The notes under the pieces are model-generated. The model searched no databases, had not been told where the DNA came from, and saw only the letters and a program-made list of their open reading frames with translations. Below are positions 3,641-62,895 of a DNA stretch of 64,000 nucleotides, in pieces. Origin of the DNA: a virus; IMG/VR virus record IMGVR_UViG_3300027850_000003, positions 1-64,000 of that record. One strand, given 5' to 3'. Positions within the stretch are counted from its first letter, which is position 1; every line of letters starts with the position of its first letter. A program made the position numbers and the translations under genes.

Positions 3641-4375
3641 ATGTTCACTAAGACTTCTGCTCAAATTGGTGGTTTTAAGGCAACTGTATTTTTGGATAAT
3701 GACACTAACGAGTATTTTTACTCACTGACTTCTGTAGCTGAATTAGTAGCAAAACCTCCTTCTAGCCCCTCGGAATTTTTAACTTCTAGAGCCTTCAAAG
3801 CTAGTTATAGTAAGGCTTTTACCCCCTCGGAATTTTCCGATGAAACAGGCGCTAGATATAAATTGTTATCCTGTGACGTTGCCTTAGAATATCTGATGTA
3901 TTGGTGTCAGAAAGGTGATAAAAAAGCATCTGCTATTATTTTTGCATTGGCTCAAGAATCTTTAGAACTCAGAGCTAGAAAAGCATTTGGAACTCTCACT
4001 TTAGAAACCCTCTCAGATGTTCACAAATTGACTGATGACGCTCTTATTACAGCTTTAAGGATAAATGCTAAGGATGCTCACAACACCTTTCAAAGGGCGT
4101 GTTACGGCTCGAAAATGAATCCAAGTGCAGTCCATGATAGAGTGACAAAATTAGTATTCGGATATACTGCTAAAGAAGCTAGAGAACTCCCTATGACAGA
4201 TTTAGAAGACGATGTTTGGTTAAATCAAGCTATTGGTATTAATCATGAACACACTAAGGACAGAGCGTTAATGCAAACTTACCGAGACGTTAAGAATAAA
4301 ATTTTCTCCTATAGAAAAGGAACTTGGGAAGAGAAAGTAGATAGAGCTTATCAAGAAGCTACAGAAAATATTTAG
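3641..4375 (+). CDS. Conserved protein of unknown function, paralogue of the 235-969 gene
   Basis: 244 residues, colinear with the 235-969 product (shared FYSLTSV, FLTSRAFKASY, YLMYWCQKG, QESLELRARKAFG and KLVFGYTAKEARELP). A TATAAA-like box about 30 bp upstream of the ATG (around 3614) may be its promoter. The gene is monocistronic, ended by the hairpin at 4385-4428. A function in phage regulation is possible but nothing in the sequence proves it. Confidence 0.75.
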   Translation: MFTKTSAQIGGFKATVFLDNDTNEYFYSLTSVAELVAKPPSSPSEFLTSRAFKASYSKAFTPSEFSDETGARYKLLSCDVALEYLMYWCQKGDKKASAIIFALAQESLELRARKAFGTLTLETLSDVHKLTDDALITALRINAKDAHNTFQRACYGSKMNPSAVHDRVTKLVFGYTAKEARELPMTDLEDDVWLNQAIGINHEHTKDRALMQTYRDVKNKIFSYRKGTWEEKVDRAYQEATENI

Positions 4376-4384
4376 TAAATAATT

Positions 4385-4428
4385 AGAGGTAGAAATCAAC
4401 TAAGACTCTACCTCTTTCTTTTTATTTT
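4385..4428. terminator. Bidirectional terminator
   Basis: A 9-bp perfect stem AGAGGTAGA / TCTACCTCT with a 13-nt loop, followed by a T-rich run on the plus strand. It separates the stop of the plus-strand gene at 4375 from the stop of the minus-strand gene at 4422. Confidence 0.75.
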
Positions 4429-4841
4429 AGGAATTCTTCTTCTAAGATATCAGCTATTTGATTAAAGTCTAATTCCCAAACATCGTTTAACTCAGCTAAA
4501 CTATAATAACCCCACGTATTAACTCTATCTTCTTTTTTATAATTTTCTTCTAGTATTTCTATTAGTTTTGGATTTTCTAAGCTGATTTTAAAAAGATGTG
4601 TTCTTTCTTCTAAGTCCAATAAGTTTAGAATACTCTTAGGTAATACACTCTCTTCATTTAAAATAGTACAGCAATCATCTTCTTCAAGTAGCGCTTCCCA
4701 GTCTATCCTGTTAGTGAGGTCACAGAGAACTCCTAGACAACAAAACTTATTATCTCTACTCCTTAAATAGGATTGTCCCTGTTGATACTCTCCACTTCTA
4801 AGAGCTTCGATCCATTCTTTGATAAAAATTAAGTTAGTCAT
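4422..4841 (-). CDS. Hypothetical phage protein, 139 aa
   Basis: The N-terminal EWIEALRSGEYQQGQSYLRS and the following FCCLGVLCDL segment match a small protein family often annotated as hypothetical in phages and bacteria (W...LRSG.Y.Q....L......CCLGVLC.L). No function is known to me. The Cys-Cys pair and a later Cys pair (DDCCTIL) may bind metal or form disulfides. Last gene of the minus-strand operon that begins near 8.3 kb. Confidence 0.7.
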   Translation of the reverse strand: MTNLIFIKEWIEALRSGEYQQGQSYLRSRDNKFCCLGVLCDLTNRIDWEALLEEDDCCTILNEESVLPKSILNLLDLEERTHLFKISLENPKLIEILEENYKKEDRVNTWGYYSLAELNDVWELDFNQIADILEEEFLK

Positions 4842-11003: not shown

Positions 11004-12008
11004 TTATTTTCTCACTCCTTGAATAAATCTTTTGCTAATATTATTTACTTTCCCAAATACTGAATCGTATATCTTATTTACTCCTCTAGTAAAATGAACT
11101 ACCTCAGTTAAAGCATTAAATACTCTATAAGCTGAATACTTACCTTTTGATAACTCTGCTCCTTTCTGTTCTTCTAAGAGTCTCATAGTTTCCTTAAATA
11201 GGTAGTTACTATCATAGTGTTCTACATTCTCTAACTCTAATGAATATCTAACTAGCTCAGTAATCTCCTTAGAATTTAAATCTAAAGAGTTCCAATACTG
11301 GTATAACTTAACAGTCTCTTGGAATGAGAAATCTTCTATATCAAAAGAAGTAAGCAGACTCTTATAGGTTTGGCTAGCATTTCCTCTATGACTTATAGTA
11401 TATCTCTGGTCGAAGTTACTAAGAGACATTCTAAGAGTGTTATCGCATACTACTCTGGTAATAGTTGAGTAAATTGCATTAGCTCCCTTATGATTACTCA
11501 GAAACATAAGAGTTAGTAGTAAGTCATCTCCTTCTACTACTGATAAAGTATTTTGCTCTAATTGAACCCAGAACATTTTACCTTGAAATAAGACCCCTGA
11601 ACTGTAATATTGTAATTTATCAGGAAACTCACTTCTTAGTTTCTCTGCTTTATCTAATACTTCTTTATGTTGGATAATTTCGTAAATATCCGAAACTGAA
11701 GAATTTAAAATAGTATTAATATCAGGTCTAGTTAGATAATGAACATCTTCACTAGGACTGAACCTATAATATTCATGAGTAAAATACGGTTTCTTTTCTA
11801 CTATGATATTCGAGACATTAGTATGATATTCAATATCTTCCTTAGTTATATTTCTATCATTAATAACTGTTGGAACCATTTTGAAACTTTCACCAGTATA
11901 AATGTTTCGATTAGTAGTTCCTGACCACCAAGGGAGTTCCTTGCCAATAAAGGGAATTAAAAACTCGGAGTTATCATTGATAGCTTCAACTTCGATACCG
12001 TGTGTCAT
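11004..12008 (-). CDS. DUF932 family protein
   Basis: 334 residues, the usual length of the phage/plasmid DUF932 family, whose function is not established. Supporting segments: GIEVEAINDNSEFLIPFIGKELPWW at the N-terminus (split here in description), a central SSGVLFQGKMFWVQLEQN, NHKGANAIYSTITRVVCDNTL (family D...RVVCxNT pattern), and a C-terminal SAYRVFNALTEVVHFTRG. The leader carries 11-nt-loop hairpin B 28 nt upstream of the ATG. Confidence 0.8.
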   Translation of the reverse strand: MTHGIEVEAINDNSEFLIPFIGKELPWWSGTTNRNIYTGESFKMVPTVINDRNITKEDIEYHTNVSNIIVEKKPYFTHEYYRFSPSEDVHYLTRPDINTILNSSVSDIYEIIQHKEVLDKAEKLRSEFPDKLQYYSSGVLFQGKMFWVQLEQNTLSVVEGDDLLLTLMFLSNHKGANAIYSTITRVVCDNTLRMSLSNFDQRYTISHRGNASQTYKSLLTSFDIEDFSFQETVKLYQYWNSLDLNSKEITELVRYSLELENVEHYDSNYLFKETMRLLEEQKGAELSKGKYSAYRVFNALTEVVHFTRGVNKIYDSVFGKVNNISKRFIQGVRK

Positions 12009-12097: not shown

Positions 12098-12298
12098 CTA
12101 TTGTGATTTGGAGTTGGGGAAGAGAAGATTATTAGTCATAAAACAGAAGTTTGTATTATTTATTTTATCTTAAGGCTCCAGAATTAAAATTTAATACATT
12201 ATCGTTTCTATTTTTTCACTACTTTTTACTCTACTATCTTCTATTATTATATTTATTTTTAGAATTCATAAGTTTTACCTATTGTAATTTGGAGTTGG
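12098..12298. repeat. Imperfect 20-bp direct repeat straddling the left inverted repeat
   Basis: CTATTGTGATTTGGAGTTGG at 12098-12117 and CTATTGTAATTTGGAGTTGG at 12279-12298, 181 bp apart with one mismatch. One copy is outside and one inside the left 39-bp inverted repeat of the helicase-like island. Could be protein-binding sites or the trace of a duplication. Confidence 0.6.
12156..12194. repeat. Left 39-bp inverted repeat of the helicase-like island
   Basis: A perfect 39-bp inverted match to 14239-14277, with the GC-richest core CTTAAGGCTCCAG. Two further bases either side match with single mismatches. The pair encloses the 12475-14154 gene plus 280 bp of non-coding DNA on one side and 84 bp on the other. 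Hairpins 2 kb apart are not terminators, so end repeats of a mobile unit or recombination sites are more likely. Confidence 0.85.
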
Positions 12299-12474: not shown

Positions 12475-14154
12475 CTAAACTATCTCGTACCCTGCAACAG
12501 TTTTATTATTGACAGACTTTCTAGTAGCTTGAATATTAAAAATTCTCTCAATATCACTAGCTTTAGCTTTTTTCTCTAATCCAATATCCTCATAAAGTCT
12601 AGTTAAAATCACTTTTATATCCTTAGATAAGTAAAAACCAAGAGTGAAAAGATTCTTAACCTCTTTGTCTATAAACTCTTGTGATCTTAAGTTATTAAAT
12701 TCTTTTCTAATCTTATCCGGTTGAAATCCTAGTCTTTTATAATCTCTTTTAGATAAGACTCCAATAGTTTCTTTTATTAATGGACAAGCATTACTAGCAG
12801 CTTCTAAACTAATTTCGTCGTTGCAATAAGCTTTAATAATATTTCTTGCATTTTTACTAACTATAAAATCTAATTTGATGAAGGGGTTTTCTAAAATTTC
12901 AAATCTTTTACTTTCTTCATAAAAACAATTGATAGAAAGCCCATTCTTATAAACTTCAATGACATCTTTGTATCTCCTCTTCTCTAATAGGAGGAGTAGC
13001 TCATCAAAGTATACTTGTCCTTCTTCATTTCTAGCCAAATAACTATCTTCTGTGAATCCCTTAGCTGCTGCTTCTTTTTGCTTATCTGTTCCAGTATTAT
13101 AAAGACTTAACCAATCATTAGTAGTCTCAATTTTTGTTTCAATTATACTTTCAAATTCTTCTTTAGTAATACTTAAAGGATTTTCATTAAATATGTGGAT
13201 AATATAGTGCCTAAAAGGATTAGTTTCAGTTCTAATACGTCCAGCCACTTGAAAAATATCAGTGTCAATGGAAACTAATGTGTTTTTATTCCTGTTATTT
13301 GAGACAACAAAAGCTAAACCTGTATCTGAATAAATATCTACTCCTTTAAATGCACAGGAAATTATAAAATTGAACATTTTCTCTGGGTTATTAGCAGTAG
13401 AAATACCAAAATACCCTAATTTTTTCTTATTTTCTAATGTATTACTACAAATAACTCTACATTCACTTATTAATAGGTCACAAGATTCAATAATATCTCG
13501 AATCATAGTAACACTGTTGACATAAAAATAGGCAGCTTGAGGTTTTTTTCCGTCTATTTCAATGTCCAAGCATTCGTCTCTAAATTTAGCTACTATTTGC
13601 TTAACTTTATAAATCGGGTTAGTAGTTTTTAAGGGAGTAACTTTAACTTTTTCAATATTATCCCACTCTAATTCAGTATAAGGAAGGTTTTTTAATTGAG
13701 TAGGAAGAAACTCTTTCTCTATTGGAGTAGCTGAGATAAAACTTACTTTAGGAAAATTCTCAATTGTAGTTAGTAGAGTATTAATTGCTTTATTTCTATA
13801 AGCATAAGCGTCTAATAAGTCACTAAATTCATCAATAACAATGTGGTACAAAGGTGATATAAAAGAAGCTACTTTATGAAAAGAATCGTAAGTCACCATT
13901 ATTTTAGGTACTTCTGTATTCTCAATATAATCTTTTATTGTGACTTCAGTAACTCCTGAGTAAACCCCTAATATATCTTCTTTTCTTCTATTATTAGGGT
14001 ATTGAGCTACTTTATTATTTATCATAGCTACTGTAGGAACTACTAAGACTAGAGCATCTGAGTTCTCAAGAGCAAATGAACTACAACCACACCCTGTAAT
14101 TTTTTTGTCAACTATACCTAAAGGGATTTCTGAGTATTTGTCTGAATAATACAT
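12475..14154 (-). CDS. Degenerate SF2-helicase-like protein within an inverted-repeat island (paralogue of 60645-62477)
   Basis: 559 residues. Helicase-like motifs in order: a P-loop position reading TGCGCSSFALEN with no Lys (residues about 20-31), VLVVPT, motif Ia-like, a DEFS Walker B in HIVIDEFSDLLD, motif III FISATPI, a VNSVTMIRDII motif IV, and motif VI QVAGRIRTETNPFRH. This is the layout of replication-origin-binding/Bacteroides BT4734-like helicases with the K-T-I-T-G-x-G-A-T type P-loop. Motor core about 1-330; the C-terminal 65 residues (KDIKVILTRLYEDIGLEKKAKA, then DIERIFNIQATRKSVNNK) are shared with a GIY-YIG protein at 45064. Weak ribosome site. Whether it hydrolyses ATP is unknown. 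Confidence 0.7.
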   Translation of the reverse strand: MYYSDKYSEIPLGIVDKKITGCGCSSFALENSDALVLVVPTVAMINNKVAQYPNNRRKEDILGVYSGVTEVTIKDYIENTEVPKIMVTYDSFHKVASFISPLYHIVIDEFSDLLDAYAYRNKAINTLLTTIENFPKVSFISATPIEKEFLPTQLKNLPYTELEWDNIEKVKVTPLKTTNPIYKVKQIVAKFRDECLDIEIDGKKPQAAYFYVNSVTMIRDIIESCDLLISECRVICSNTLENKKKLGYFGISTANNPEKMFNFIISCAFKGVDIYSDTGLAFVVSNNRNKNTLVSIDTDIFQVAGRIRTETNPFRHYIIHIFNENPLSITKEEFESIIETKIETTNDWLSLYNTGTDKQKEAAAKGFTEDSYLARNEEGQVYFDELLLLLEKRRYKDVIEVYKNGLSINCFYEESKRFEILENPFIKLDFIVSKNARNIIKAYCNDEISLEAASNACPLIKETIGVLSKRDYKRLGFQPDKIRKEFNNLRSQEFIDKEVKNLFTLGFYLSKDIKVILTRLYEDIGLEKKAKASDIERIFNIQATRKSVNNKTVAGYEIV

Positions 14155-14216: not shown

Positions 14217-14238
14217 GTAAAAACCCACCTAGATTGTG

Positions 14239-14277
14239 TTAAATTTTAATTCTGGAGCCTTAAGATAAAATAAATAA
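14239..14277. repeat. Right 39-bp inverted repeat of the helicase-like island
   Basis: Exact reverse complement of 12156-12194. It lies upstream of the helicase-like gene, outside its promoter-like box. Flanking bases diverge apart from a short imperfect extension. Confidence 0.85.
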
Positions 14278-14468
14278 CACATAATCGTCATAATTATATA
14301 ATCTATTTCTTAATTTTCCCAGCATTATAGTAAGTGATTAGCTATTATTGTAGTTAAATTTAGAATTTCTAAAAATAGCTATAATAATAATCTTTCAGCT
14401 ACTAAAGATTTACTGAAAATTAGAAAGAATAGATAATTACCAGGGAGTTTTTAGGCTCCCTTTCTCAT

Positions 14469-15729: not shown

Positions 15730-18700
15730 TTATTTACTTTTTTCTGGCATTAAACATTTATCTGAGTCACATCCTGTACTACCTGACTCCGCTACAAAGT
15801 CAAATCCTTTAGAATATTGGTTAACTAGAGTTACAAAGTCAGTAGAAATTTGTCTATTTTTTACTGCTTGCATTTCTTCTAAGTATTTCTCATGAGTAAT
15901 AGGTTCAAAAGGTAGTCTAGGAAACGTCTCTAGTGAGTCGAATTTCGCGAGTAAGGCAGCAGAGATGTAACCTTCATCATTTTGTATTAGGTTGTAGATA
16001 GCGGTTCCTAGTGGCTCGATTTCAGCTTCTGTGAGTTCGATAGTAGCTGAAACAGTATGAGTAGCATAGTATTTCTGAACTTGCATAAAAAAATCAAGTT
16101 GAGCTAGCACAGTGTTTTCGCTAGGGTTGTAATCTGCCTTATCCGCTATAGATGCCCAAGATACTTCTACTGGAATTTCTATTAACACTTCATTAACTCT
16201 TGGGTCATTTATGTCATTTAGTAGATTTCCATTTTCGTCTTTGCATGATTGAGAAGGAACAATATTATAGCCATAATCTTTACTAGCACTAACAATAGGA
16301 CTATTACTACTAAAAGTAATCCTACGAATATATCTAGTAGCTTTAGGAGCGTGCCAACCAGCCGAAGCATTAGTAAGTAAAGAAACGGAGCCTGAAGGTT
16401 GTACAACAGTATAACGATTAGGTTGTTTAATACTATGTCTTTTGCAATACTCTTCAACTGTTTCTCTTACACTATTTTTCCATAACTCTAAATAATAACG
16501 TTCAGTATCTAAGAAATATTGAGCTTCTGAAGAGTCTTTACTTCTTCCAGTTTTCCACCATAACAGCCAGTCAGCACCAAACTTATTGACAAAGAAATCG
16601 AATAATCCAGTAAAAGAAATTCCGATAATAGGATCAATTTCACGAGAATATTTAAAATCTTCAATATCAAATTCATGACTAAGTAAAGGTAAAGCTGCTA
16701 AGGTAGATGCTTTAAATGCTTCTACTTGTTCCAGTTCGTTATTTGGGTCTAAATTATTTAAATGTACTTGAGATAAGTTGCACAGAAATTTTTCACCTAA
16801 AACCTCAAAACAATTGTGAGTGACGATACCATTAGCAATAAAAGAGTTAGTTAATGGGACGTGTAAATCATAAACAGTTTCTTCTCCTACTTCTTTTACT
16901 GAAACTACATTAGAAGAATAACGTTTATTTACTGTCTCCTCTAAATAGTTTATTAAAGGTTTTTCTACCCATAAATCTGCTTGTTCTTGTTTAAGAGGAC
17001 AAAGAGGAAACCCAATTATTTCCACAAACCTATTAAAACTCTCAGCAAATATTGATAAAGTATAACTACCATTATTATTACTTATTTTTTTTGTACCATC
17101 TTTTAAAGTATACGGAACTCCTTTAGCTCCTGACTTTACAGCGCATCTAGTAGATGATATAATTCCTAAGTTTAAAAGTAAAATTTGTATTTGCTCTATA
17201 AATTTTTTTGATTTATTCACTAACAGTGCTTGACGAGCTACTGCTTTATTAATATTCCCTACTGAACCATCAGCAGAAAATAAACCTTGCAAAAAACCTA
17301 TAATAGTTTCTCTTCTCTCTTGAAAAAAGCTAACAGGTAACTCTTCTTTTGTTTGCACGTTTAATCTATCAAACCAATCACTTAACTTTAAAGAACAGGA
17401 TTTAAATTCATACACTCCTTTGTGTAGTCTAGGAATATATCTATGCTCAGTAATTGTCTCTAAAGCATAAAGAACTGTAGTTCCTGCTGTTAAATATTCT
17501 TTAGGATTAAATACGAATCCTTTAGCTAAATACTCCGCTCTATTTTTACTTCTGCTTTTCATTTTCACGTTATACCCATCACCATACCACCAACCTAGCA
17601 TTTGAGACTGTTCAGAATTAATATTATTCTTAGAATCTTCACCCCATTTTCCTTCTCCTTGTTGAAATAAAACTTTATGTTCGGAAGTTAAATTTTTAGT
17701 TTCTACCCAACCTTTATCCGTAAAATGTTGATGATTAGAAGTAGATTTAACAGACAAACCATTAGCTAGTTTTACTTCATAAATAGCTTTAACTCCTGTA
17801 GAAAATGCAATAGCCTGTGTTTGGATTACTCCAGAAAGACCAATAGTTCTTAAATCTACAGAAGTCTCAAAAGTTTTACCAGCTAAATCTTGAATAGGAA
17901 CTAAACCATTGGCAGTAGCAATTAGAGTATCCCCAATTAGGCAGGGGTTGGCAGAATACCGTTGCATTCGATGTTCTAGTTCTTTATTATCCATTTCTTT
18001 TAAAGATAGGAGATAGTTACTACCATCTCTTCTTGACTGACAATAGAGTGCAATAAACTCTAGCTTCTTTTCGCTTGTATTCAGTAAATCAACATTACCT
18101 CTAGCAATAGCTTCTGGAACATATTGAATTGCCCCTTCTCCTGAGTAGTATTGCTTTCTAACTGCTTCAATAATAGTTTCCAAATCAGGTTTATTATGGT
18201 AACAAAGAGTATGATTTCCAAATCTAAGCATATCTCGGTCAGGGTCAATTTTCCAGTTACCTTGATCATCCTGAACCCATAAATTATCTTTTGACTCAGA
18301 AAAGAATTTATCGCTTGGAGTTCCTTGATTAATTCTCGCACTTCTTCTGATGTTCCCGGAAACGGCTATTACCCCATGAATAGCTAAGATTTTACATATT
18401 TCTAAACTATTTAATTTTCTTCCTACTGAAGTGTTTAGTATTTTGATAATATTTTTAAGCCCTTCTTCTAGTCTCTCAGGGTTACTTAATCCTCCAAAAC
18501 CTTTAAGAATTTTCCCAGCAGGTCTTACTTCCGATAAATCTATATAAAGGTGAATTTTTTCATATTTTACATTTTCAAAGTTATAAGAGAAATCAAAGGA
18601 TGCAAATTTTAATAAGTCAGTAGCAATATCAACCCAACCTTCTTTAGAATCTCCTACTTTATATTTAATAACTAAAGCTTTAGAATCTGAGTCTAGTGAA

Positions 18701-19182
18701 CAAGTATAATTGCTACTCTCAAAGATATTATTCTCATTCCATTGAGAGCCTAGCTCAACTACTTCTTTTACTTCAATAGAGTAATTAATCTCGGGCAACT
18801 GACTAATAATATGCTCCTCAACTACTGTCCCAACTCCACATCCCATTAGTAAAGCTCTAAAGTTAAATCTAAACGCTTTCCAGCTATCTACTGGAACTGA
18901 GGCACAATTATATGCACCAATAAAGTTCTTCTGCTGTTTTACCCAGTCAGTACCTCCGATCCAAAACCATCTACCAGATACAAAGACAATGTTCTTATAA
19001 AAATACTCCCTAACTAACTCTAATTCTTTATCTGTCAACAATCCAAAATCTTGTAATCCTTTAATCGCTCTATCTTTAGCTTCTTGAGCTGTCTCCTTAG
19101 CCCCAGTTGCAGAAGTTCGAGAATAGCTACGAAGAAATAACGGGTAAGCAGTAGTAGCAGTGAAATCAGTATTCTGAGGCAT
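15730..19182 (-). CDS. nrdJ: Adenosylcobalamin-dependent (class II) ribonucleotide reductase with an intein
   Basis: 1150 residues, of which 377 are an intein, leaving a 773-residue enzyme like monomeric class II reductases. It reduces ribonucleotides to deoxyribonucleotides through a thiyl radical generated from adenosylcobalamin. Visible: FVSGRWFWIGGT near residue 67, the N-terminal redox Cys region YNCASVPVDSW (about 91-101), MGCGVGT at 113-119, the active-site NPC split by the intein so that Cys791 follows it (CFEVLGEKF), the PSGSVSLLTNASAGWHA substrate loop (about 929-945), and a C-terminal redox pair C1138/C1143 in GCDSDKC. Links to ThyX, dUTPase and the PduO-like enzyme by pathway. Confidence 0.93.
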   Translation of the reverse strand: MPQNTDFTATTAYPLFLRSYSRTSATGAKETAQEAKDRAIKGLQDFGLLTDKELELVREYFYKNIVFVSGRWFWIGGTDWVKQQKNFIGAYNCASVPVDSWKAFRFNFRALLMGCGVGTVVEEHIISQLPEINYSIEVKEVVELGSQWNENNIFESSNYTCSLDSDSKALVIKYKVGDSKEGWVDIATDLLKFASFDFSYNFENVKYEKIHLYIDLSEVRPAGKILKGFGGLSNPERLEEGLKNIIKILNTSVGRKLNSLEICKILAIHGVIAVSGNIRRSARINQGTPSDKFFSESKDNLWVQDDQGNWKIDPDRDMLRFGNHTLCYHNKPDLETIIEAVRKQYYSGEGAIQYVPEAIARGNVDLLNTSEKKLEFIALYCQSRRDGSNYLLSLKEMDNKELEHRMQRYSANPCLIGDTLIATANGLVPIQDLAGKTFETSVDLRTIGLSGVIQTQAIAFSTGVKAIYEVKLANGLSVKSTSNHQHFTDKGWVETKNLTSEHKVLFQQGEGKWGEDSKNNINSEQSQMLGWWYGDGYNVKMKSRSKNRAEYLAKGFVFNPKEYLTAGTTVLYALETITEHRYIPRLHKGVYEFKSCSLKLSDWFDRLNVQTKEELPVSFFQERRETIIGFLQGLFSADGSVGNINKAVARQALLVNKSKKFIEQIQILLLNLGIISSTRCAVKSGAKGVPYTLKDGTKKISNNNGSYTLSIFAESFNRFVEIIGFPLCPLKQEQADLWVEKPLINYLEETVNKRYSSNVVSVKEVGEETVYDLHVPLTNSFIANGIVTHNCFEVLGEKFLCNLSQVHLNNLDPNNELEQVEAFKASTLAALPLLSHEFDIEDFKYSREIDPIIGISFTGLFDFFVNKFGADWLLWWKTGRSKDSSEAQYFLDTERYYLELWKNSVRETVEEYCKRHSIKQPNRYTVVQPSGSVSLLTNASAGWHAPKATRYIRRITFSSNSPIVSASKDYGYNIVPSQSCKDENGNLLNDINDPRVNEVLIEIPVEVSWASIADKADYNPSENTVLAQLDFFMQVQKYYATHTVSATIELTEAEIEPLGTAIYNLIQNDEGYISAALLAKFDSLETFPRLPFEPITHEKYLEEMQAVKNRQISTDFVTLVNQYSKGFDFVAESGSTGCDSDKCLMPEKSK
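16813..17943 (-). other. Intein with LAGLIDADG homing endonuclease inside NrdJ
   Basis: Residues 414-790 of the reductase. Starts with Cys (CLIGDTLIATANG, splicing block A), continues with STSNHQHF (block B, TxxH-like) and ends with SFIANGIVTHN followed by Cys (blocks F and G). Between them lie two DOD-type motifs, MLGWWYGDG (about 528-536) and IIGFLQGLFSADGSVG (about 627-642), so it is a full homing intein of normal size. Insertion is directly before the active-site Cys, a highly conserved site that inteins favour. All splicing residues look intact, so active splicing is likely. Confidence 0.93.
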
Positions 19183-39115: not shown

Positions 39116-39535
39116 TTAGCAGATTATAAATTTACTGACGTGTTCAAAATTAATATCAACTTTACTTAGAACTAATTTTTGATATTTAACAGGAAGTTCT
39201 GAATAATCTCTAGTCCTAATAATCGCACTAAGAAGATTAAAAGGAAAAAATAAGTGCTTTGTAGGTTGCTGAGTAGCTTTAAATTTTTCATCTTCAAAAT
39301 AGAGTTTAATATAACTTTCAAACGTAACTTTCCATTCTAGTTCTATTCCCTCTTTCATAATATATTGCCAAATCATCTTATCAATTTGAACAAACACGAA
39401 CCTAGTAAGAATATCTTCAGGTAAAAAGTCAGCAGTTAAATTTATGCAAGTACCTGTTTTAGCGAATACTCTTTGATTAGGAGTTAAAAATTGCCAGAGC
39501 TGTCTATCTTGTTTAGTTTTTAGTTTTAGACTCAT
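39116..39535 (-). CDS. Hypothetical protein, 139 aa
   Basis: Not recognised. Basic start (LKLKTKQDRQLWQFLTPNQR), aromatic and hydrophobic body (FVFVQIDKMIWQYIMKEGIE). It overlaps the end of the GIY-YIG gene by 23 nt, so the endonuclease may have inserted just upstream of it. Confidence 0.5.
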   Translation of the reverse strand: MSLKLKTKQDRQLWQFLTPNQRVFAKTGTCINLTADFLPEDILTRFVFVQIDKMIWQYIMKEGIELEWKVTFESYIKLYFEDEKFKATQQPTKHLFFPFNLLSAIIRTRDYSELPVKYQKLVLSKVDINFEHVSKFIIC

Positions 39536-40220
39536 TTTTTCCGATAATTAGTGACCAACCTTTGTGACTTTTTTGCTTACCTATAACTAAAGTAGAAACC
39601 CCAGCAGCAGCTAAATTAAACTTAGTTACAAATTCACATTGTAAGAGAGTATGTGTTCCATGTTCTTTATGGGTAAGCGTCACACTATTACCTCTATTAT
39701 TTATGTTAAGTACATTGCTACATTTATTTTCTGCTAGTACCCAATCTCCAACTCTGTTTCGTTTTTTACTAACTAAATCACATACACGATCTAGTTCTGG
39801 ATATTTTATTCTCAGTTCTAATCTGGTTCCAGTAACTACTCCGTATTTAGGGTTATACAAGTTAACAATTTCAGGGTTATATGTTAGATTATTTTCCCCA
39901 TCTATTCCACCTCCTTTGGCTGTATTATACCCTTTAGCAGTATTACAAGTGTCTAAATCAGCGATAAAAAATCTTTCATATTCGTATACCTTTTCATGTT
40001 CAACTTTTGCTAAAATATACCATTGCCAACTCTCAGGAGGATAAAATTTAAGTGCATTAGCAAAATGATGGGAGTATTTTACAGTATTTTTGAAATGATC
40101 TTTTTTTCTAATTGCTAAAGTTCTAGTCGTAAATCCAATATATTTCTTGCCACTAATACTATTTTCAGCACAGTAGATAGTAGCTAAAGGTTTTCTAGTA
40201 TCAGTAGCAAGAGAAGACAT
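39513..40220 (-). CDS. GIY-YIG homing endonuclease
   Basis: 235 residues. The catalytic domain is seen in TIYCAENSISGKKYIGFT (G-x-Y / Y-I-G), with a catalytic Arg in FTTRTLAIRKKDHF and Glu in KVYEYERFFI, followed by NTAKGGGIDG. The C-terminal part (NNRGNSVTLTHKEHGTHTLL, then LAAAGVSTLVIGKQKSHKGW) is a NUMOD-like DNA-binding region typical of free-standing homing enzymes. It cuts a specific DNA site to spread its own gene. It differs from the other two GIY-YIG proteins in this window. Confidence 0.85.
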   Translation of the reverse strand: MSSLATDTRKPLATIYCAENSISGKKYIGFTTRTLAIRKKDHFKNTVKYSHHFANALKFYPPESWQWYILAKVEHEKVYEYERFFIADLDTCNTAKGYNTAKGGGIDGENNLTYNPEIVNLYNPKYGVVTGTRLELRIKYPELDRVCDLVSKKRNRVGDWVLAENKCSNVLNINNRGNSVTLTHKEHGTHTLLQCEFVTKFNLAAAGVSTLVIGKQKSHKGWSLIIGKNESKTKN

Positions 40221-45063: not shown

Positions 45064-45867
45064 TTAACAATTAATAATTTTAAGCATTGCAACTTTTTTA
45101 CCTTGCACTCTTTTATCATGTTCTTTGATAGTGTACCATTGAGACAAATCAGTCGCCTTAGCAATTTTGTTAATGCCTAAAATAGTATAAATGTTCTGTA
45201 GTTCTTTTTTAATAAGTGTTCTATCCACTAATTGACCTACTTTCAAGTCAAGAATACTGACAATCTTACTTTCCATACTAAGAGTAATTTTCAAGTTAAG
45301 TAATACAGCAGTGAAATTACTTGCTCTGTAATTTAAAGCTTTCATTTTCTCAACTCCTAATTTTTTATAAGCTTCTTCTATTAAAGGAAAACTAATCTCA
45401 ATTTCTTTAATTACTTCTTGATTATTATCTTCTTTAGCTTGGATATATTCTAAACATAGCTTCTTAAAACTAGGTTTTTTAGCCAATCTCAGCCTATTTA
45501 AAGTAGAAGATGAAGTTATATTAGCCTCTACTTCTTCCAGACAATATTTAGTAGGTAAGTTACTAACAATTAAAGATAATGTATCGGGATAAACTTTATC
45601 AATATTATACTTAGGTTTTAGGACGCTAATTAAGTATGTTTCAAGTAACTCACAATCTACTAAAGAGTTACAAAAGTAGTATTCTATTTTACTAATTTCT
45701 GTTTTCCAAGATTCTGTAATACTATTCTTTTTAAGTTCAAAATTTAAATGTCGTTGCAACCTATTAATTAGATTAGAACTTTTTCCTATATAGGCTAGTT
45801 GAGTTCCAACATAGAATAGATAAACTCCTTTTTTGTTCTTAACTGGTCTGAGGTTAAAATATTTCAT
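45064..45867 (-). CDS. GIY-YIG endonuclease fused to the C-terminal domain of the helicase-like proteins
   Basis: 267 residues from the ATG at 45865-45867; the TTG 12 nt upstream is less likely because both GIY-YIG paralogues begin M(K/T)YFNL(R/K)PV. Catalytic N-terminus: KKGVYLFYVGTQLAYIGKSS, then RLQRHL and LETYLISVLKPKYNIDK. Residues about 130-267 are a domain related to the end of both helicase-like proteins: LGVEKMKALNYRASNF against VGTKRIRTLNYAKVAI, and ELQNIYTILGINKIAKATDL against QVLGKIYKDFKIEKTPKAVEL. Not flanked by an obvious inverted repeat but it carries the 24-bp upstream box. Likely a homing-type nuclease of the same element family. Confidence 0.8.
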   Translation of the reverse strand: MKYFNLRPVKNKKGVYLFYVGTQLAYIGKSSNLINRLQRHLNFELKKNSITESWKTEISKIEYYFCNSLVDCELLETYLISVLKPKYNIDKVYPDTLSLIVSNLPTKYCLEEVEANITSSSTLNRLRLAKKPSFKKLCLEYIQAKEDNNQEVIKEIEISFPLIEEAYKKLGVEKMKALNYRASNFTAVLLNLKITLSMESKIVSILDLKVGQLVDRTLIKKELQNIYTILGINKIAKATDLSQWYTIKEHDKRVQGKKVAMLKIINC

Positions 45868-45940
45868 AAGTGAAAACAACGACTTAAGTTATTAATATCA
45901 TTGTACACTATTTTTAATCTTAAGTATACTGTTTTATTAA

Positions 45941-60579: not shown

Positions 60580-60610
60580 ATTCCATTTTTTACAGTAATT
60601 ATTCAGTATA
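60580..60610. repeat. Left 31-bp inverted repeat of the second helicase-like island
   Basis: Perfect inverted match to 62507-62537, containing TTTTTTACAGTAATTATTC. The repeat runs into a TATAAT (60607-60612) that may be the promoter of the gene. The sequence is unrelated to the 39-bp repeat of the first island although the enclosed genes are paralogues. Confidence 0.85.
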
Positions 60611-60644
60611 ATAGATATATAAACTAATAAAAAAGGTAATATCT

Positions 60645-62477
60645 GTGTCTGATATAATTAAAATCCAAGCTCCTGAGTCTGCTCTTTATATGAGTAACTT
60701 TATGACTGAGCTTCCTCACGGCATTATAAATAAAAAAGCTTGCGGAGTAGGAGGTAGTTTCATTGCTATTACTAATCCAGAGAATTATATTATTGCTGTA
60801 CCTACTACAGAATTAATAAAGAATAAATGTTTTCAACACTCTGATTTACTAGGTATTTACTCAATTAAAGATAGTGGAGTTACCTTCAAAATGTTTAAAG
60901 AGTATATTGAGACTCATAAAGTCTTTAAGATAATGACAACCTATGATTCTTTACCTAGAGTAGTCAAATGGTTAAAAGCTTTAAAATTAAATGTCTATGA
61001 AGACTTTAAACTTTTAATAGATGAGTACCATAAAATTCTTAGTGATTATAGTTATAGAGATAAAGCAATACAAGGGCTATTAGAAGAGTCATTAAAATTT
61101 AACTACTATACTTTCCTTTCTGCTACTCCGATTAACCCTAAGTTTATTCCTAAAGAATTAGTCGAATTACCTTACTATGAAATTGAATGGCATAGTACCA
61201 AAAGTATTAAACCTTATAGGAAAAAGACTGCTAAACCTTTACTTCATGCAGCTCATATCATTAGCAATTATAAAGCTAATAACTATTCCGCTGAACTTAA
61301 AGTAGACGGACAAATCTGTATTAGTAATGAAGCGTATTTCTTTGTAAACTCAGTTCATTCTATAGCAGATATCTTACACGCAACTAACTTAGTTCCAAGT
61401 GAAGTAAAAATTATCTGTGCTAATAATTCCACTAATAGAGATGTGTTAGACCCTTTTCCTATTTCATCAGTAACAGATACAAATAAACCTTTTACATTTG
61501 TTACTTCTAAATCTTTTTTAGGATGCGACTTCTACTCAGAAAGTGGGATAGTTTATATGATTAGTAATGTAAATAAGAAACATACTCTACTAGATATTTC
61601 AACTGATATTTTTCAGATTAGTGGGAGAATCAGAAATACTAATAATCCTTTTAGAAATATTCTTTTCCACATTTATAATACTGGAACTTCTGATTTAACT
61701 AAAGAAGAGTTTGAAACTATTTTAGAAGAGAAAGTAGCTAATACTAATGTTCAAATAGAAACTTTTAATGGACTAAGTGAACTAGCAAAGAAAGCTAATC
61801 TTAAAAGATACTCAATGGATTTAGAAGATGATTATAGTTATTACAATCCAGATACTAATCTCTTACAATTTAATGAACTAAAGAAACTAAATGAAGAGTT
61901 TCAGTTTAGTATTATCAATGATATTTATACTAATGGTTTCTCAGTTAGAAGTGCTTATGAAAATGCAGGATTTGATGTAAGTGAAGATCAAGAATATATT
62001 TCCTATGAAGAAGATTTCATTGAAAATATGACAAAGATTAGCTTCAAAGGTATCATGCTAGAGTATTGTAAGCTAGCAGATAATATTGAGAATTTAGATT
62101 TAGAATTTGTAAACAGTAGAAGATTTACTTTAGAAAAACTAGCTCAAGAAAATTTATCATTAGATATAAAAGAGATAGTAAAAAAAGTAGGAACTAAAAG
62201 AATCCGAACACTAAATTATGCTAAAGTAGCTATCAACAAAGAATTATATAGCAAGTGTGATGAGGTGAAAGATGCTATTAGTGAAGCGATCTACAACAAA
62301 CTAGAGAAGAATACTTTTTATTCTACAGCTCAAATTAAACAAGTTTTAGGAAAAATTTATAAAGATTTTAAGATTGAAAAAACACCTAAAGCAGTAGAAC
62401 TTGATAAATATTGTAGTATTCGCAAGGTAAGTAGAACTGTAGAAAATAAATTAGTTAAAGGAGTCTTTATAGTGTAA
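60645..62477 (+). CDS. Degenerate SF2-helicase-like protein within an inverted-repeat island (paralogue of 12475-14154)
   Basis: 610 residues from a GTG with an AAAGG site; an ATG at 60690 is a possible later start. Motif order as in the paralogue: CGVGGSFIAI at the P-loop position (no Lys), IIAVPT, LLIDEYHKILSD (Walker B), FLSATPI (motif III), VNSVHSIADIL, QISGRIRNTNNPFRN (motif VI). C-terminal domain about 470-610 with FYSTAQIKQVLGKIYKDFKI and a basic end RKVSRTVENKLVKGV is shared with the GIY-YIG fusion. Together with the following GIY-YIG gene it looks like a mobile unit. Confidence 0.7.
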   Translation: MSDIIKIQAPESALYMSNFMTELPHGIINKKACGVGGSFIAITNPENYIIAVPTTELIKNKCFQHSDLLGIYSIKDSGVTFKMFKEYIETHKVFKIMTTYDSLPRVVKWLKALKLNVYEDFKLLIDEYHKILSDYSYRDKAIQGLLEESLKFNYYTFLSATPINPKFIPKELVELPYYEIEWHSTKSIKPYRKKTAKPLLHAAHIISNYKANNYSAELKVDGQICISNEAYFFVNSVHSIADILHATNLVPSEVKIICANNSTNRDVLDPFPISSVTDTNKPFTFVTSKSFLGCDFYSESGIVYMISNVNKKHTLLDISTDIFQISGRIRNTNNPFRNILFHIYNTGTSDLTKEEFETILEEKVANTNVQIETFNGLSELAKKANLKRYSMDLEDDYSYYNPDTNLLQFNELKKLNEEFQFSIINDIYTNGFSVRSAYENAGFDVSEDQEYISYEEDFIENMTKISFKGIMLEYCKLADNIENLDLEFVNSRRFTLEKLAQENLSLDIKEIVKKVGTKRIRTLNYAKVAINKELYSKCDEVKDAISEAIYNKLEKNTFYSTAQIKQVLGKIYKDFKIEKTPKAVELDKYCSIRKVSRTVENKLVKGVFIV

Positions 62478-62506
62478 TTACCTTTTCTCTAAGTATTTTT
62501 ATCCTA

Positions 62507-62537
62507 TATACTGAATAATTACTGTAAAAAATGGAAT
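62507..62537. repeat. Right 31-bp inverted repeat of the second helicase-like island
   Basis: Exact reverse complement of 60580-60610, 30 nt after the stop codon. The following TTATAATAGAGG may be the promoter of the GIY-YIG gene downstream, which lies outside the repeat. Confidence 0.85.
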
Positions 62538-62598
62538 ACTAAGTTATAATAGAGGTAGTTAAGTGAGAACTCTCAGCATTAAATTACCTCTTTCTTTT

Positions 62599-62895
62599 AT
62601 GACCTATTTCAATTTAAAACCAGTCCAAGACCAGAAAGGAATCTATCTTCTATACGTTAAAGATGAGCTTGCTTATGTAGGTAAAAGCAATAATATTTTA
62701 ATAAGACCACAACAGCGTTTTTATATTACAGATAAAGAATCATCTACTAAAGATATAGATAGAATTGAATATTATGTTTGTAACTCCTTAACAGACTGTG
62801 AACGACTAGAGACTTATCTTATTAATACTTTTGCTCCTAAATATAATTTAGATGAAGTTTCTCCTGATAAATTAACTTTAGTAATTGGTAATTAG
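62599..62895 (+). CDS. Short GIY-YIG endonuclease-like protein, paralogue of the 45064 N-terminus
   Basis: 98 residues from ATG 62599; an upstream GTG at 62563 would add 12 residues absent from the paralogue. MTYFNLKPVQDQKGIYLLYV, DELAYVGKSN, IEYYVCNSLTDCERLETYLI and FAPKYNLDEVSPDKLTLVI match the 45064 product one to one, but the protein ends where that one enters its C-terminal domain. It is a lone catalytic domain, either truncated or working with the helicase-like protein upstream, which carries the missing domain. Confidence 0.75.
   Translation: MTYFNLKPVQDQKGIYLLYVKDELAYVGKSNNILIRPQQRFYITDKESSTKDIDRIEYYVCNSLTDCERLETYLINTFAPKYNLDEVSPDKLTLVIGN

What the first reader, a model, noticed from the sequence alone, without database searches (positions are those of the whole stretch)
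45064..45867. GIY-YIG endonuclease carries the C-terminal domain of the two helicase-like proteins
Seen by eye: the last 130 or so residues of the GIY-YIG protein align with the ends of the 559- and 610-aa proteins (shared ALNY/TLNY, IY..L/F.I.K..KA..L and a basic end). The shared module is probably the site-specific DNA-binding part, so nuclease and helicase may recognise the same target. A second GIY-YIG copy without the module sits right behind the 610-aa gene. Together this suggests a two-component selfish system: one protein opens or loads, the other cuts.
Basis: partly seen in the sequence, partly recalled or inferred. Interest (0 to 1): 0.8.

Follow-up and report, generated by a model that had tools for sequence, protein, structure and literature searches.

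The report
Nuclease borrows rival helicase's DNA-reading domain
A phage DNA-cutting enzyme carries the same tail domain, probably a DNA reader, as a family of movable helicase-like genes in related phages, which suggests that phages may build nucleases against rival elements by borrowing the rivals' own DNA-reading domain.

Summary
The last ~140 residues of the GIY-YIG protein (ATG 45867 to 45064, minus strand) match the C-termini of the 559- and 610-aa proteins: profile-profile probability 99.9%, E 4e-31. AlphaFold predicts a helical module ending in a winged helix. The host proteins have the fold and most motifs of SF2 helicases but lack the Walker A lysine.

The module recurs: four helicase copies in this 130-kb phage, nine in relatives, and members in other phages and plasmids. 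In the module tree, six GIY-fused modules fall in five separate places among 34 helicase modules, so the domain was exchanged repeatedly. The window nuclease's nearest module belongs to a helicase of another phage, not its own.

Ten of 13 helicase genes in this phage group are flanked by copy-specific inverted box pairs (p<0.05). Helicase genes sit at different places in related phages.

Best reading: an Odn-like chimeric nuclease, aimed by a borrowed winged helix at the boxes or origin of rival helicase elements. Binding, cleavage and the helicase's role as initiator are inferred.

The parts
45064..45879 (-). GIY-YIG endonuclease with C-terminal module (P0003, 271 aa from TTG; ATG at 45867)
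45604..45840 (-). GIY-YIG catalytic domain (residues 14-92); R40, E80 and N92 kept in all 4 GIY+module proteins aligned
   Evidence: UvrC GIY domain, Z 6.4
45067..45489 (-). module shared with the helicase-like proteins (residues 131-271)
45070..45282 (-). predicted winged helix at the end of the module (residues 200-270)
12475..14154 (-). SF2-helicase-like protein H12k, 559 aa; module in the last 165 aa (12478-12972)
14235..14281 (.). upstream arm of a 47-bp inverted repeat (45/47) around H12k
12152..12198 (.). downstream arm of the same inverted repeat
60645..62477 (+). SF2-helicase-like protein H60k, 610 aa; module in the last 165 aa (61980-62474)
60580..60639 (.). upstream box pair of H60k, 60 bp
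62478..62537 (.). downstream inverted copy of the H60k box pair, between H60k and the next GIY-YIG gene
62563..62895 (+). GIY-YIG protein without module, 110 aa, behind H60k

Best explanation
The GIY-YIG protein is a chimeric, sequence-directed nuclease. Its C-terminal winged-helix module comes from a family of mobile, SF2-helicase-like proteins that bind copy-specific boxes flanking their own genes (operators or origin-like sites). The module brings the GIY-YIG domain to the boxes of a rival helicase element carried by a competing phage or plasmid, and the nuclease cuts there. This is the logic shown for Odn of phage ICP1. Shown here by computation: the shared domain, its repeated exchange between helicases and GIY nucleases, a predicted winged helix, copy-specific flanking boxes, different places of the helicase genes in related phages. 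Inferred: that the module binds the boxes, that the helicase is an initiator or self-regulator, that the nuclease cuts, and that the target is a rival.
For: Module homology E 4e-31. Tree of 40 modules: the 6 GIY-fused ones need 5 changes of label, forced by well-supported branches, 5-5 in the bootstrap range. At least two GIY subfamilies carry it: Pfam GIY-YIG (P0003; L090; GIY121k by 39% identity to P0003) and MUG113/T5orf172 (L100; the Kehishuvirus protein matches L100, E 3e-15). Nearest modules: G6_H31k for P0003 (47% over 120 columns), B_H102k/G7_H90k for GIY121k (50% over 125), both types outside this record, whose ORFs show four helicases, H12k, H60k, H87k, H119k. Two module-only searches of 50,697 phage records found helicases of the family and the crAss-type GIY protein, nothing else (5 and 8 records). 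Winged-helix fold. Box test: 10 of 13 helicases at p<0.05 against mismatched flanks, 0 of 12 other genes. Boxes of the two foreign types absent from this genome at <=1 mismatch (weak evidence). Plasmids: ParA-like gene 0.9 kb from the helicase in NZ_CP123920 (by eye), no Rep_3 in 4 of 4 plasmids. Published precedent Odn.
Against: No direct evidence that the module binds any box. The GIY+module genes themselves show no significant boxes. In L100 the nuclease sits directly behind the helicase with its closest module (38%), which fits a partner better than a rival. The record is a virus contig and may be incomplete, so absence of a cognate helicase is not certain. In G2 the GIY half is decayed while the module is kept. 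The box test fails for H119k, G2_H37k and G7_H90k; the best motif of B_H102k and G2_H57k has the opposite orientation to the other eight; the p-values are uncorrected. Outgroup helicases and plasmids (9 tested) show no such boxes. The fold matches of the module are moderate (Z 5-6) and the overall model pTM is 0.49.
Confidence: 0.5

Rival explanations
1. Two-component homing system: helicase and nuclease share the module to act at one target, the nuclease makes the break and the helicase gene is copied in.
For: Helicase genes vary in place: H87k sits behind the tail-tube gene only in this phage; the 700 bases read behind it in 7 of 7 relatives hold no helicase (positions). H119k and B_H90k are 86% identical but at different loci. 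A nuclease gene (GIY-YIG, HNH or PD-(D/E)XK-like) is the next or convergent gene in 14 of 37 loci read. L100 has adjacent helicase and MUG113+module genes.
Against: No recognised nuclease beside 10 of 13 helicases here; the gene at 45064 is about 15 kb from the nearest helicase and its module is not of this phage's types. The tail-tube insertion is not a clean insert: about 4 kb of other sequence comes with it.
Confidence: 0.22
2. The module is a general phage DNA-binding or replisome-contact domain; the GIY-YIG protein is an ordinary free-standing homing endonuclease that picked it up and targets unrelated genes.
For: Phage homing endonucleases exchange DNA-binding modules widely (PMC10448857, passages). 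Winged helices are common; fold matches are only Z 5-6. GIY genes lack boxes.
Against: In two module-only searches of annotated phages the module appeared only in the helicase family and in GIY proteins, and GIY modules fall inside helicase clades at five places.
Confidence: 0.2
3. The helicase-nuclease neighbourhood is a phage recombination or replication module, and the shared domain only brings both to replicating DNA without site choice.
For: PD-(D/E)XK-like genes behind helicases in six records; the MT836525 helicase continues into a further domain that looks primase-associated (by eye).
Against: Several divergent copies per genome at changing places, with private boxes.
Confidence: 0.08

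Closest known systems
Odn (Gp88), origin-directed nuclease of Vibrio phage ICP1 (PMC8263062)
   Same: GIY-YIG superfamily nuclease fused to a DNA-binding domain like that of another element's replication protein; domain shuffling as the source of specificity.
   Different: Odn's DNA-binding domain is an N-terminal RepA_N and its nuclease is T5orf172. Here the domain is a C-terminal module of an SF2-helicase-like family, four of the six fusions are to the Pfam GIY-YIG type, and the label changes five times in the tree. Origin cutting is shown for Odn, not here.
T4-type GIY-YIG homing endonucleases such as I-TevI
   Same: N-terminal GIY-YIG plus a C-terminal DNA-binding part with a helix-turn-helix; phage-borne (I-TevI layout: passage).
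   Different: The Pfam scan of P0003 shows no NUMOD or zinc-finger match; the DNA-binding part is a helicase C-terminus.
SF2 DEAD-like helicases
   Same: Fold (Foldseek E 6e-9 to 7e-8 for Hjm, BLM, DbpA, Lhr; query TM 0.31-0.41); DE, (S/T)AT and QxxGRxR kept in 28 of 28 rows.
   Different: No Walker A lysine in the 27 filled rows (the sixth letter N seen). No convincing Pfam, PHROG, NCBIfam or PADLOC match for those scanned; the plasmid member reaches Pfam DEAD only below the cut-off (E 7e-4). No PDB sequence match.
UvrC GIY-YIG domain
   Same: Catalytic fold, Z 6.4 over 76 residues; NCBIfam UvrC models match the same part, far below their cut-offs.
   Different: DNA repair enzyme, no such module (recalled).

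Membership tests
GIY-YIG nuclease superfamily | Pfam GIY-YIG domain over its cut-off | tested here: met
   31.3 bits vs 22.6; UvrC fold Z 6.4
GIY-YIG nuclease superfamily | catalytic Arg and Glu present | tested here: met
   R40 and E80 invariant in 4 aligned proteins; that these are the catalytic positions is inferred from the family (Arg and Glu named in PMC8263062)
Odn-like origin-directed nuclease | nuclease fused to a DNA-binding domain homologous to one in another element's replication protein | tested here: inconclusive
   homology to helicase C-termini met; that the helicase is a replication protein is only suggested
Odn-like origin-directed nuclease | cuts the rival's origin | not testable with these tools
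   needs protein
Free-standing homing endonuclease | gene present or absent at a cognate site in close relatives | tested here: inconclusive
   shown for the helicase H87k; G001 has no GIY+module gene but the site of the 45064 gene was not compared base by base
Active SF2 helicase | Walker A GK(S/T) | tested here: not met
   no K in 27 filled rows
Active SF2 helicase | helicase core fold with DE, (S/T)AT, QxxGRxR | tested here: met
Plasmid replication initiator | the plasmid's replication gene, needed for its replication | tested here: inconclusive
   0 of 4 plasmids have Rep_3; other Rep families not scanned; gene tables incomplete

The most novel reading that the evidence does not exclude
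An undescribed class of mobile 'origin or operator cassettes': an SF2-like ATPase without the Walker A lysine, with a C-terminal winged helix and private flanking box pairs, which moves among phages and drives replication of some plasmids. Phages repeatedly turn its box-reading domain into a weapon by fusing it to GIY-YIG nucleases, so that box specificity works like an incompatibility or immunity type.
Probability: 0.3. Interest if true: 0.88.

Novelty: new variant of a known kind. Interest (0 to 1): 0.74.

Why it matters
Odn was presented by its authors as, to their knowledge, the first anti-element gene in which a captured DNA-binding protein is fused to a nuclease to destroy the genome it came from (PMC8263062, Discussion). 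Here an unrelated domain family shows five such exchanges on a tree of 40 modules, which would make this a general route to new phage-phage weapons. It also supplies natural pairs of module and boxes for testing how specificity changes, and gives a candidate role to a helicase-like family that the model libraries scanned here do not recognise.

Tried and rejected
Single-protein and 9-row alignment scans of viral contigs failed; scans with other queries worked. The helicase profile (28 rows) has no match in PDB sequences. The module profile gave only scattered weak hits (best E 9e-4, a tail-tube chain), not taken as homology; PHROGs for 25 module rows likewise. NCBIfam and PADLOC: no convincing helicase match (best Cas3d E 0.003 for P0001; PDC-S14 E 9e-4 for the GIY half of P0003). 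Rfam on seven helicase loci at gathering scores: only an ALIL pseudoknot elsewhere on a plasmid. Iterons in the upstream stretches: only short two- or three-copy repeats, inconclusive. Boxes around the 45064 gene looked plausible by eye but failed the test (p 0.33). Divergence of the last 25 aa as box determinant: one ortholog pair with unlike boxes (36%) against four with like boxes (52-100%); n too small. GIY-helicase adjacency in this phage alone: 2 of 4 GIY genes, p 0.012, uncorrected. Folds missing from the structural lists are not excluded.

Choices and rows dropped: the module tree left out L098 and L104 as near copies. The adjacency tally (37 loci) left out L087 (helicase broken), L098 and L099 (end of contig), L104 (copy of L103) and MT836525 (fused gene); L106, kept, has a short helicase frame. 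Only 4 of the 17 plasmid records were opened. L044 was too short to read the tail-tube site. In one search the start of B_H102k was moved 39 bases to match its ortholog, and mismatched flanks served as null, orthologs included. Random intervals reached 34 and 41 once each in 1000, about the scores of the H60k and H12k repeats, probably by landing on them; not checked.

Full report
WHAT WAS CHECKED. The window lies in G000, a 129,969-base virus record whose portal, tail and DNA polymerase-like genes (named by eye) are those of a tailed phage. The GIY-YIG gene at 45064-45879 (minus; ATG at 45867) matches Pfam GIY-YIG over its cut-off. Its C-terminus matches the ends of the 559-aa (H12k) and 610-aa (H60k) proteins weakly in pairs but decisively as profiles: probability 99.86%, E 4.2e-31, 143 columns, GIY residues 131-271. 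In a shuffle control the best of 500 scored 30.4 bits, against 34-143 bits for the real module over 13 helicases.

THE REST OF THE PHAGE. Searching the whole record with the protein finds two more helicase copies with the module, H87k (87089-88876) and H119k (119410-121092), and a second GIY+module gene, GIY121k (121036-121827). GIY121k and H119k lie tail to tail and overlap by 57 bases; the GIY121k frame reads past its module end into the reverse strand of H119k (by eye). Behind H87k lies an in-frame leftover of another helicase's module.

RELATIVES. Phage G001 (150 kb) is largely collinear with G000. Further relatives were found through the tail-tube protein. In all, 13 helicase genes of this group were compared. 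Their places differ. H87k is behind the tail-tube gene only in G000; the 700 bases read there in 7 of 7 relatives hold no helicase (L044 too short). H119k and B_H90k are 86% identical, more than the nearby genes with a counterpart (42-68%), but at different loci. H60k and B_H19k are at the same locus, each with a GIY-YIG gene behind it, but only 37% identical. G002 carries a GIY+module gene with a decayed GIY half.

WIDER FAMILY. The helicase family occurs in Psychrobacter phage D'Alembert, Acinetobacter phage Phab24, Edwardsiella phage ET-ABTNL-9 and faecal phage contigs, further IMG/VR contigs, and 16 Acinetobacter and 1 Bacteroides plasmid records. The members scanned have no convincing Pfam, PHROG, NCBIfam or PADLOC match (weak short hits such as phrog_31753, E 0.001); the plasmid member reaches Pfam DEAD below its cut-off (E 7e-4) and most plasmid members are annotated as DEAD/DEAH box helicase. 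No PDB sequence relative. The predicted structure (pLDDT 85.6) matches SF2 helicases (Foldseek E from 2e-9, query TM about 0.3-0.4). D126, E127, A160, T161, Q324, G327, R328 and R330 are invariant in 28 of 28 rows. The Walker A lysine is absent in the 27 filled rows, and Lys30 is invariant in 27 (for the one letter not listed).

NUCLEASE NEIGHBOURS. The next or convergent gene is a recognised nuclease in 3 of 13 loci of this group (GIY-YIG at H60k, B_H19k and H119k) and in 11 of 24 other loci. These are HNH in D'Alembert and, after a 640-base gap, in ET (PHROG E 9e-48 and 4e-23); GIY-YIG+module in L090 and MUG113+module in L100; a GIY-like gene in Phab24 by eye only (no Pfam or PHROG match); and six related PD-(D/E)XK-like small proteins in MT836675, L086, L095, L097, L102 and L105 (mutual BLAST and motif; Pfam at best weak). 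None was recognised in MT838459, L082, L085, L089, L091, L096, L101, L103, L106 or the four plasmids opened. Nine next genes without a nuclease look were run against Pfam and gave no nuclease domain over its cut-off (the L103 one is an SF1-type helicase with a weak ExoX-like C-terminus); the rest were judged by eye or annotation. Loci were read as found, and several are related.

THE MODULE. The alignment of 42 modules shows a helical part and a part with IK..L..IY..L.I.K.AKATD+..Y. AlphaFold on P0003 (mean pLDDT 81.6, pTM 0.49) gives most of residues 141-271 above 90, and the order helix, strand, helix, helix, strand, strand at 202-270 is that of a winged helix. The structural second look finds the RFX DNA-binding domain (Z 6.0, 64 residues) and the C-terminal region of NrS-1 (Z 5.2, 62 residues) for residues 200-270, and UvrC GIY-YIG for the N-terminus; these Z values are moderate. 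In a tree of 40 modules the six GIY-fused ones need 5 changes, forced by well-supported branches; Keh and L090_GIYm have long branches. P0003's module falls with G6_H31k, G2GIY and B_H19k/G3_H32k, GIY121k's with B_H102k/G7_H90k, and L100's with the helicase next to it. Module-only searches of annotated phages found the module in crAss-type phages (5 records; the Kehishuvirus one is the 181-aa GIY protein, the other four are hypothetical proteins not opened) and in helicases of the family.

THE BOXES. In a test that compares each gene's true downstream flank with those of other genes, 10 of 13 helicase genes show four copies of a 12-base box, two inverted on each side (p<0.05 each, uncorrected). 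In eight of the ten the order is -> <- gene -> <-, at -69 to -48, -24 to -6, -1 to +32 and +38 to +64; in B_H102k and G2_H57k the best motif runs the other way. Of 12 other genes (3 GIY+module, 9 outgroup helicases) none passes. A simpler inverted-repeat test passes at p<=0.03 for 9 of 13 and for none of the 12; it fails for H12k, H87k, H119k and B_H90k, though H12k has a 47-bp repeat just outside its reach. H119k fails both. Boxes differ between copies (TTACTTTTTT, ATTCCATTTTTT, TGTGGAGTTTTT), and the long repeats of H12k and H60k have no second home in G000 or G001 beyond chance-size matches. Three box patterns of the foreign types matching the GIY modules are absent from G000 at up to one mismatch and hit 3, 1 and 0 times at two. 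The helicase-free tail-tube site of G001 and L049 holds CCTCTATTTTTATGTCAA, close to the H87k box, but L047 and L048 read ATGCTT there and the other three differ; this was seen afterwards and is not a test.

INTERPRETATION. A winged-helix module on mobile helicase-like genes with private boxes, repeatedly moved onto nucleases, matches the logic of Odn. In that system a GIY-YIG-superfamily (T5orf172) nuclease carries a domain like the RepA_N domain of the PLE satellite and cuts the PLE origin (PMC8263062: abstract, section 7, first part of section 10, passages). That plasmid members may be replication initiators is suggested by a ParA-like gene 0.9 kb away in NZ_CP123920 (by eye), by the absence of Rep_3 in 4 of 4 plasmids and by stretches without listed genes upstream, 1.36-1.41 kb in three plasmids and 3.25 kb in the fourth (gene tables incomplete). 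None of this is proof. Work on domain exchange among phage homing endonucleases was seen as passages only (PMC10448857). Literature searches (listings with titles and abstract starts) showed no description of this family or fusion; the library lacks most subscription journals and holds no preprints.

VERDICT. The shared domain is real. The nuclease is best read as an Odn-like chimera with a new kind of targeting domain. The target, the cutting and the helicase's role remain to be shown.

Noticed in passing
window 15730-19182: Ribonucleotide reductase-like gene (1150 aa) with what looks like an intein in the middle (CLIGDTLIATANGLVPIQDL ... THNC), by eye.
   Followed up: no
window 39513-40220: A fourth GIY-YIG gene, without the module, matching PHROG homing endonucleases (E 5e-13); its relative in G001 is 52% identical.
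   Followed up: no
G000 about 88970-89170 (L007 about 3970-4170): In-frame remnant of an H12k-like helicase module directly behind H87k, a trace of module-level recombination.
   Followed up: partly
G000 121036-121092 (L008 4037-4093): GIY121k and H119k abut tail to tail at their module ends; GIY121k has no stop of its own there and reads into the reverse strand of H119k.
   Followed up: partly
L010 3584-4931, L012 1755-3988, L017 3529-4889, L019 3483-4889: Stretches of 1.3-2.2 kb without annotated genes upstream of helicase genes in two phages and two plasmids, partly conserved between plasmids and between D'Alembert and ET; no Rfam match there.
   Followed up: partly
helicase motif I, residues 30-38 of the 610-aa protein: Walker A lysine missing in the filled rows, with an invariant lysine at position 30 that might replace it.
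   Followed up: no
window 4422-4841; G000 122069-122479 and 125615-126010: Three genes of 131-139 aa whose best G001 match is the same gene; the first two share WIEALRSGxYxQGQ, a repeated small family.
   Followed up: no
window 11004-12008 and L101 6835-7851: The gene downstream of H12k is DUF932, and that downstream of the L101 helicase is DUF3871.
   Followed up: no
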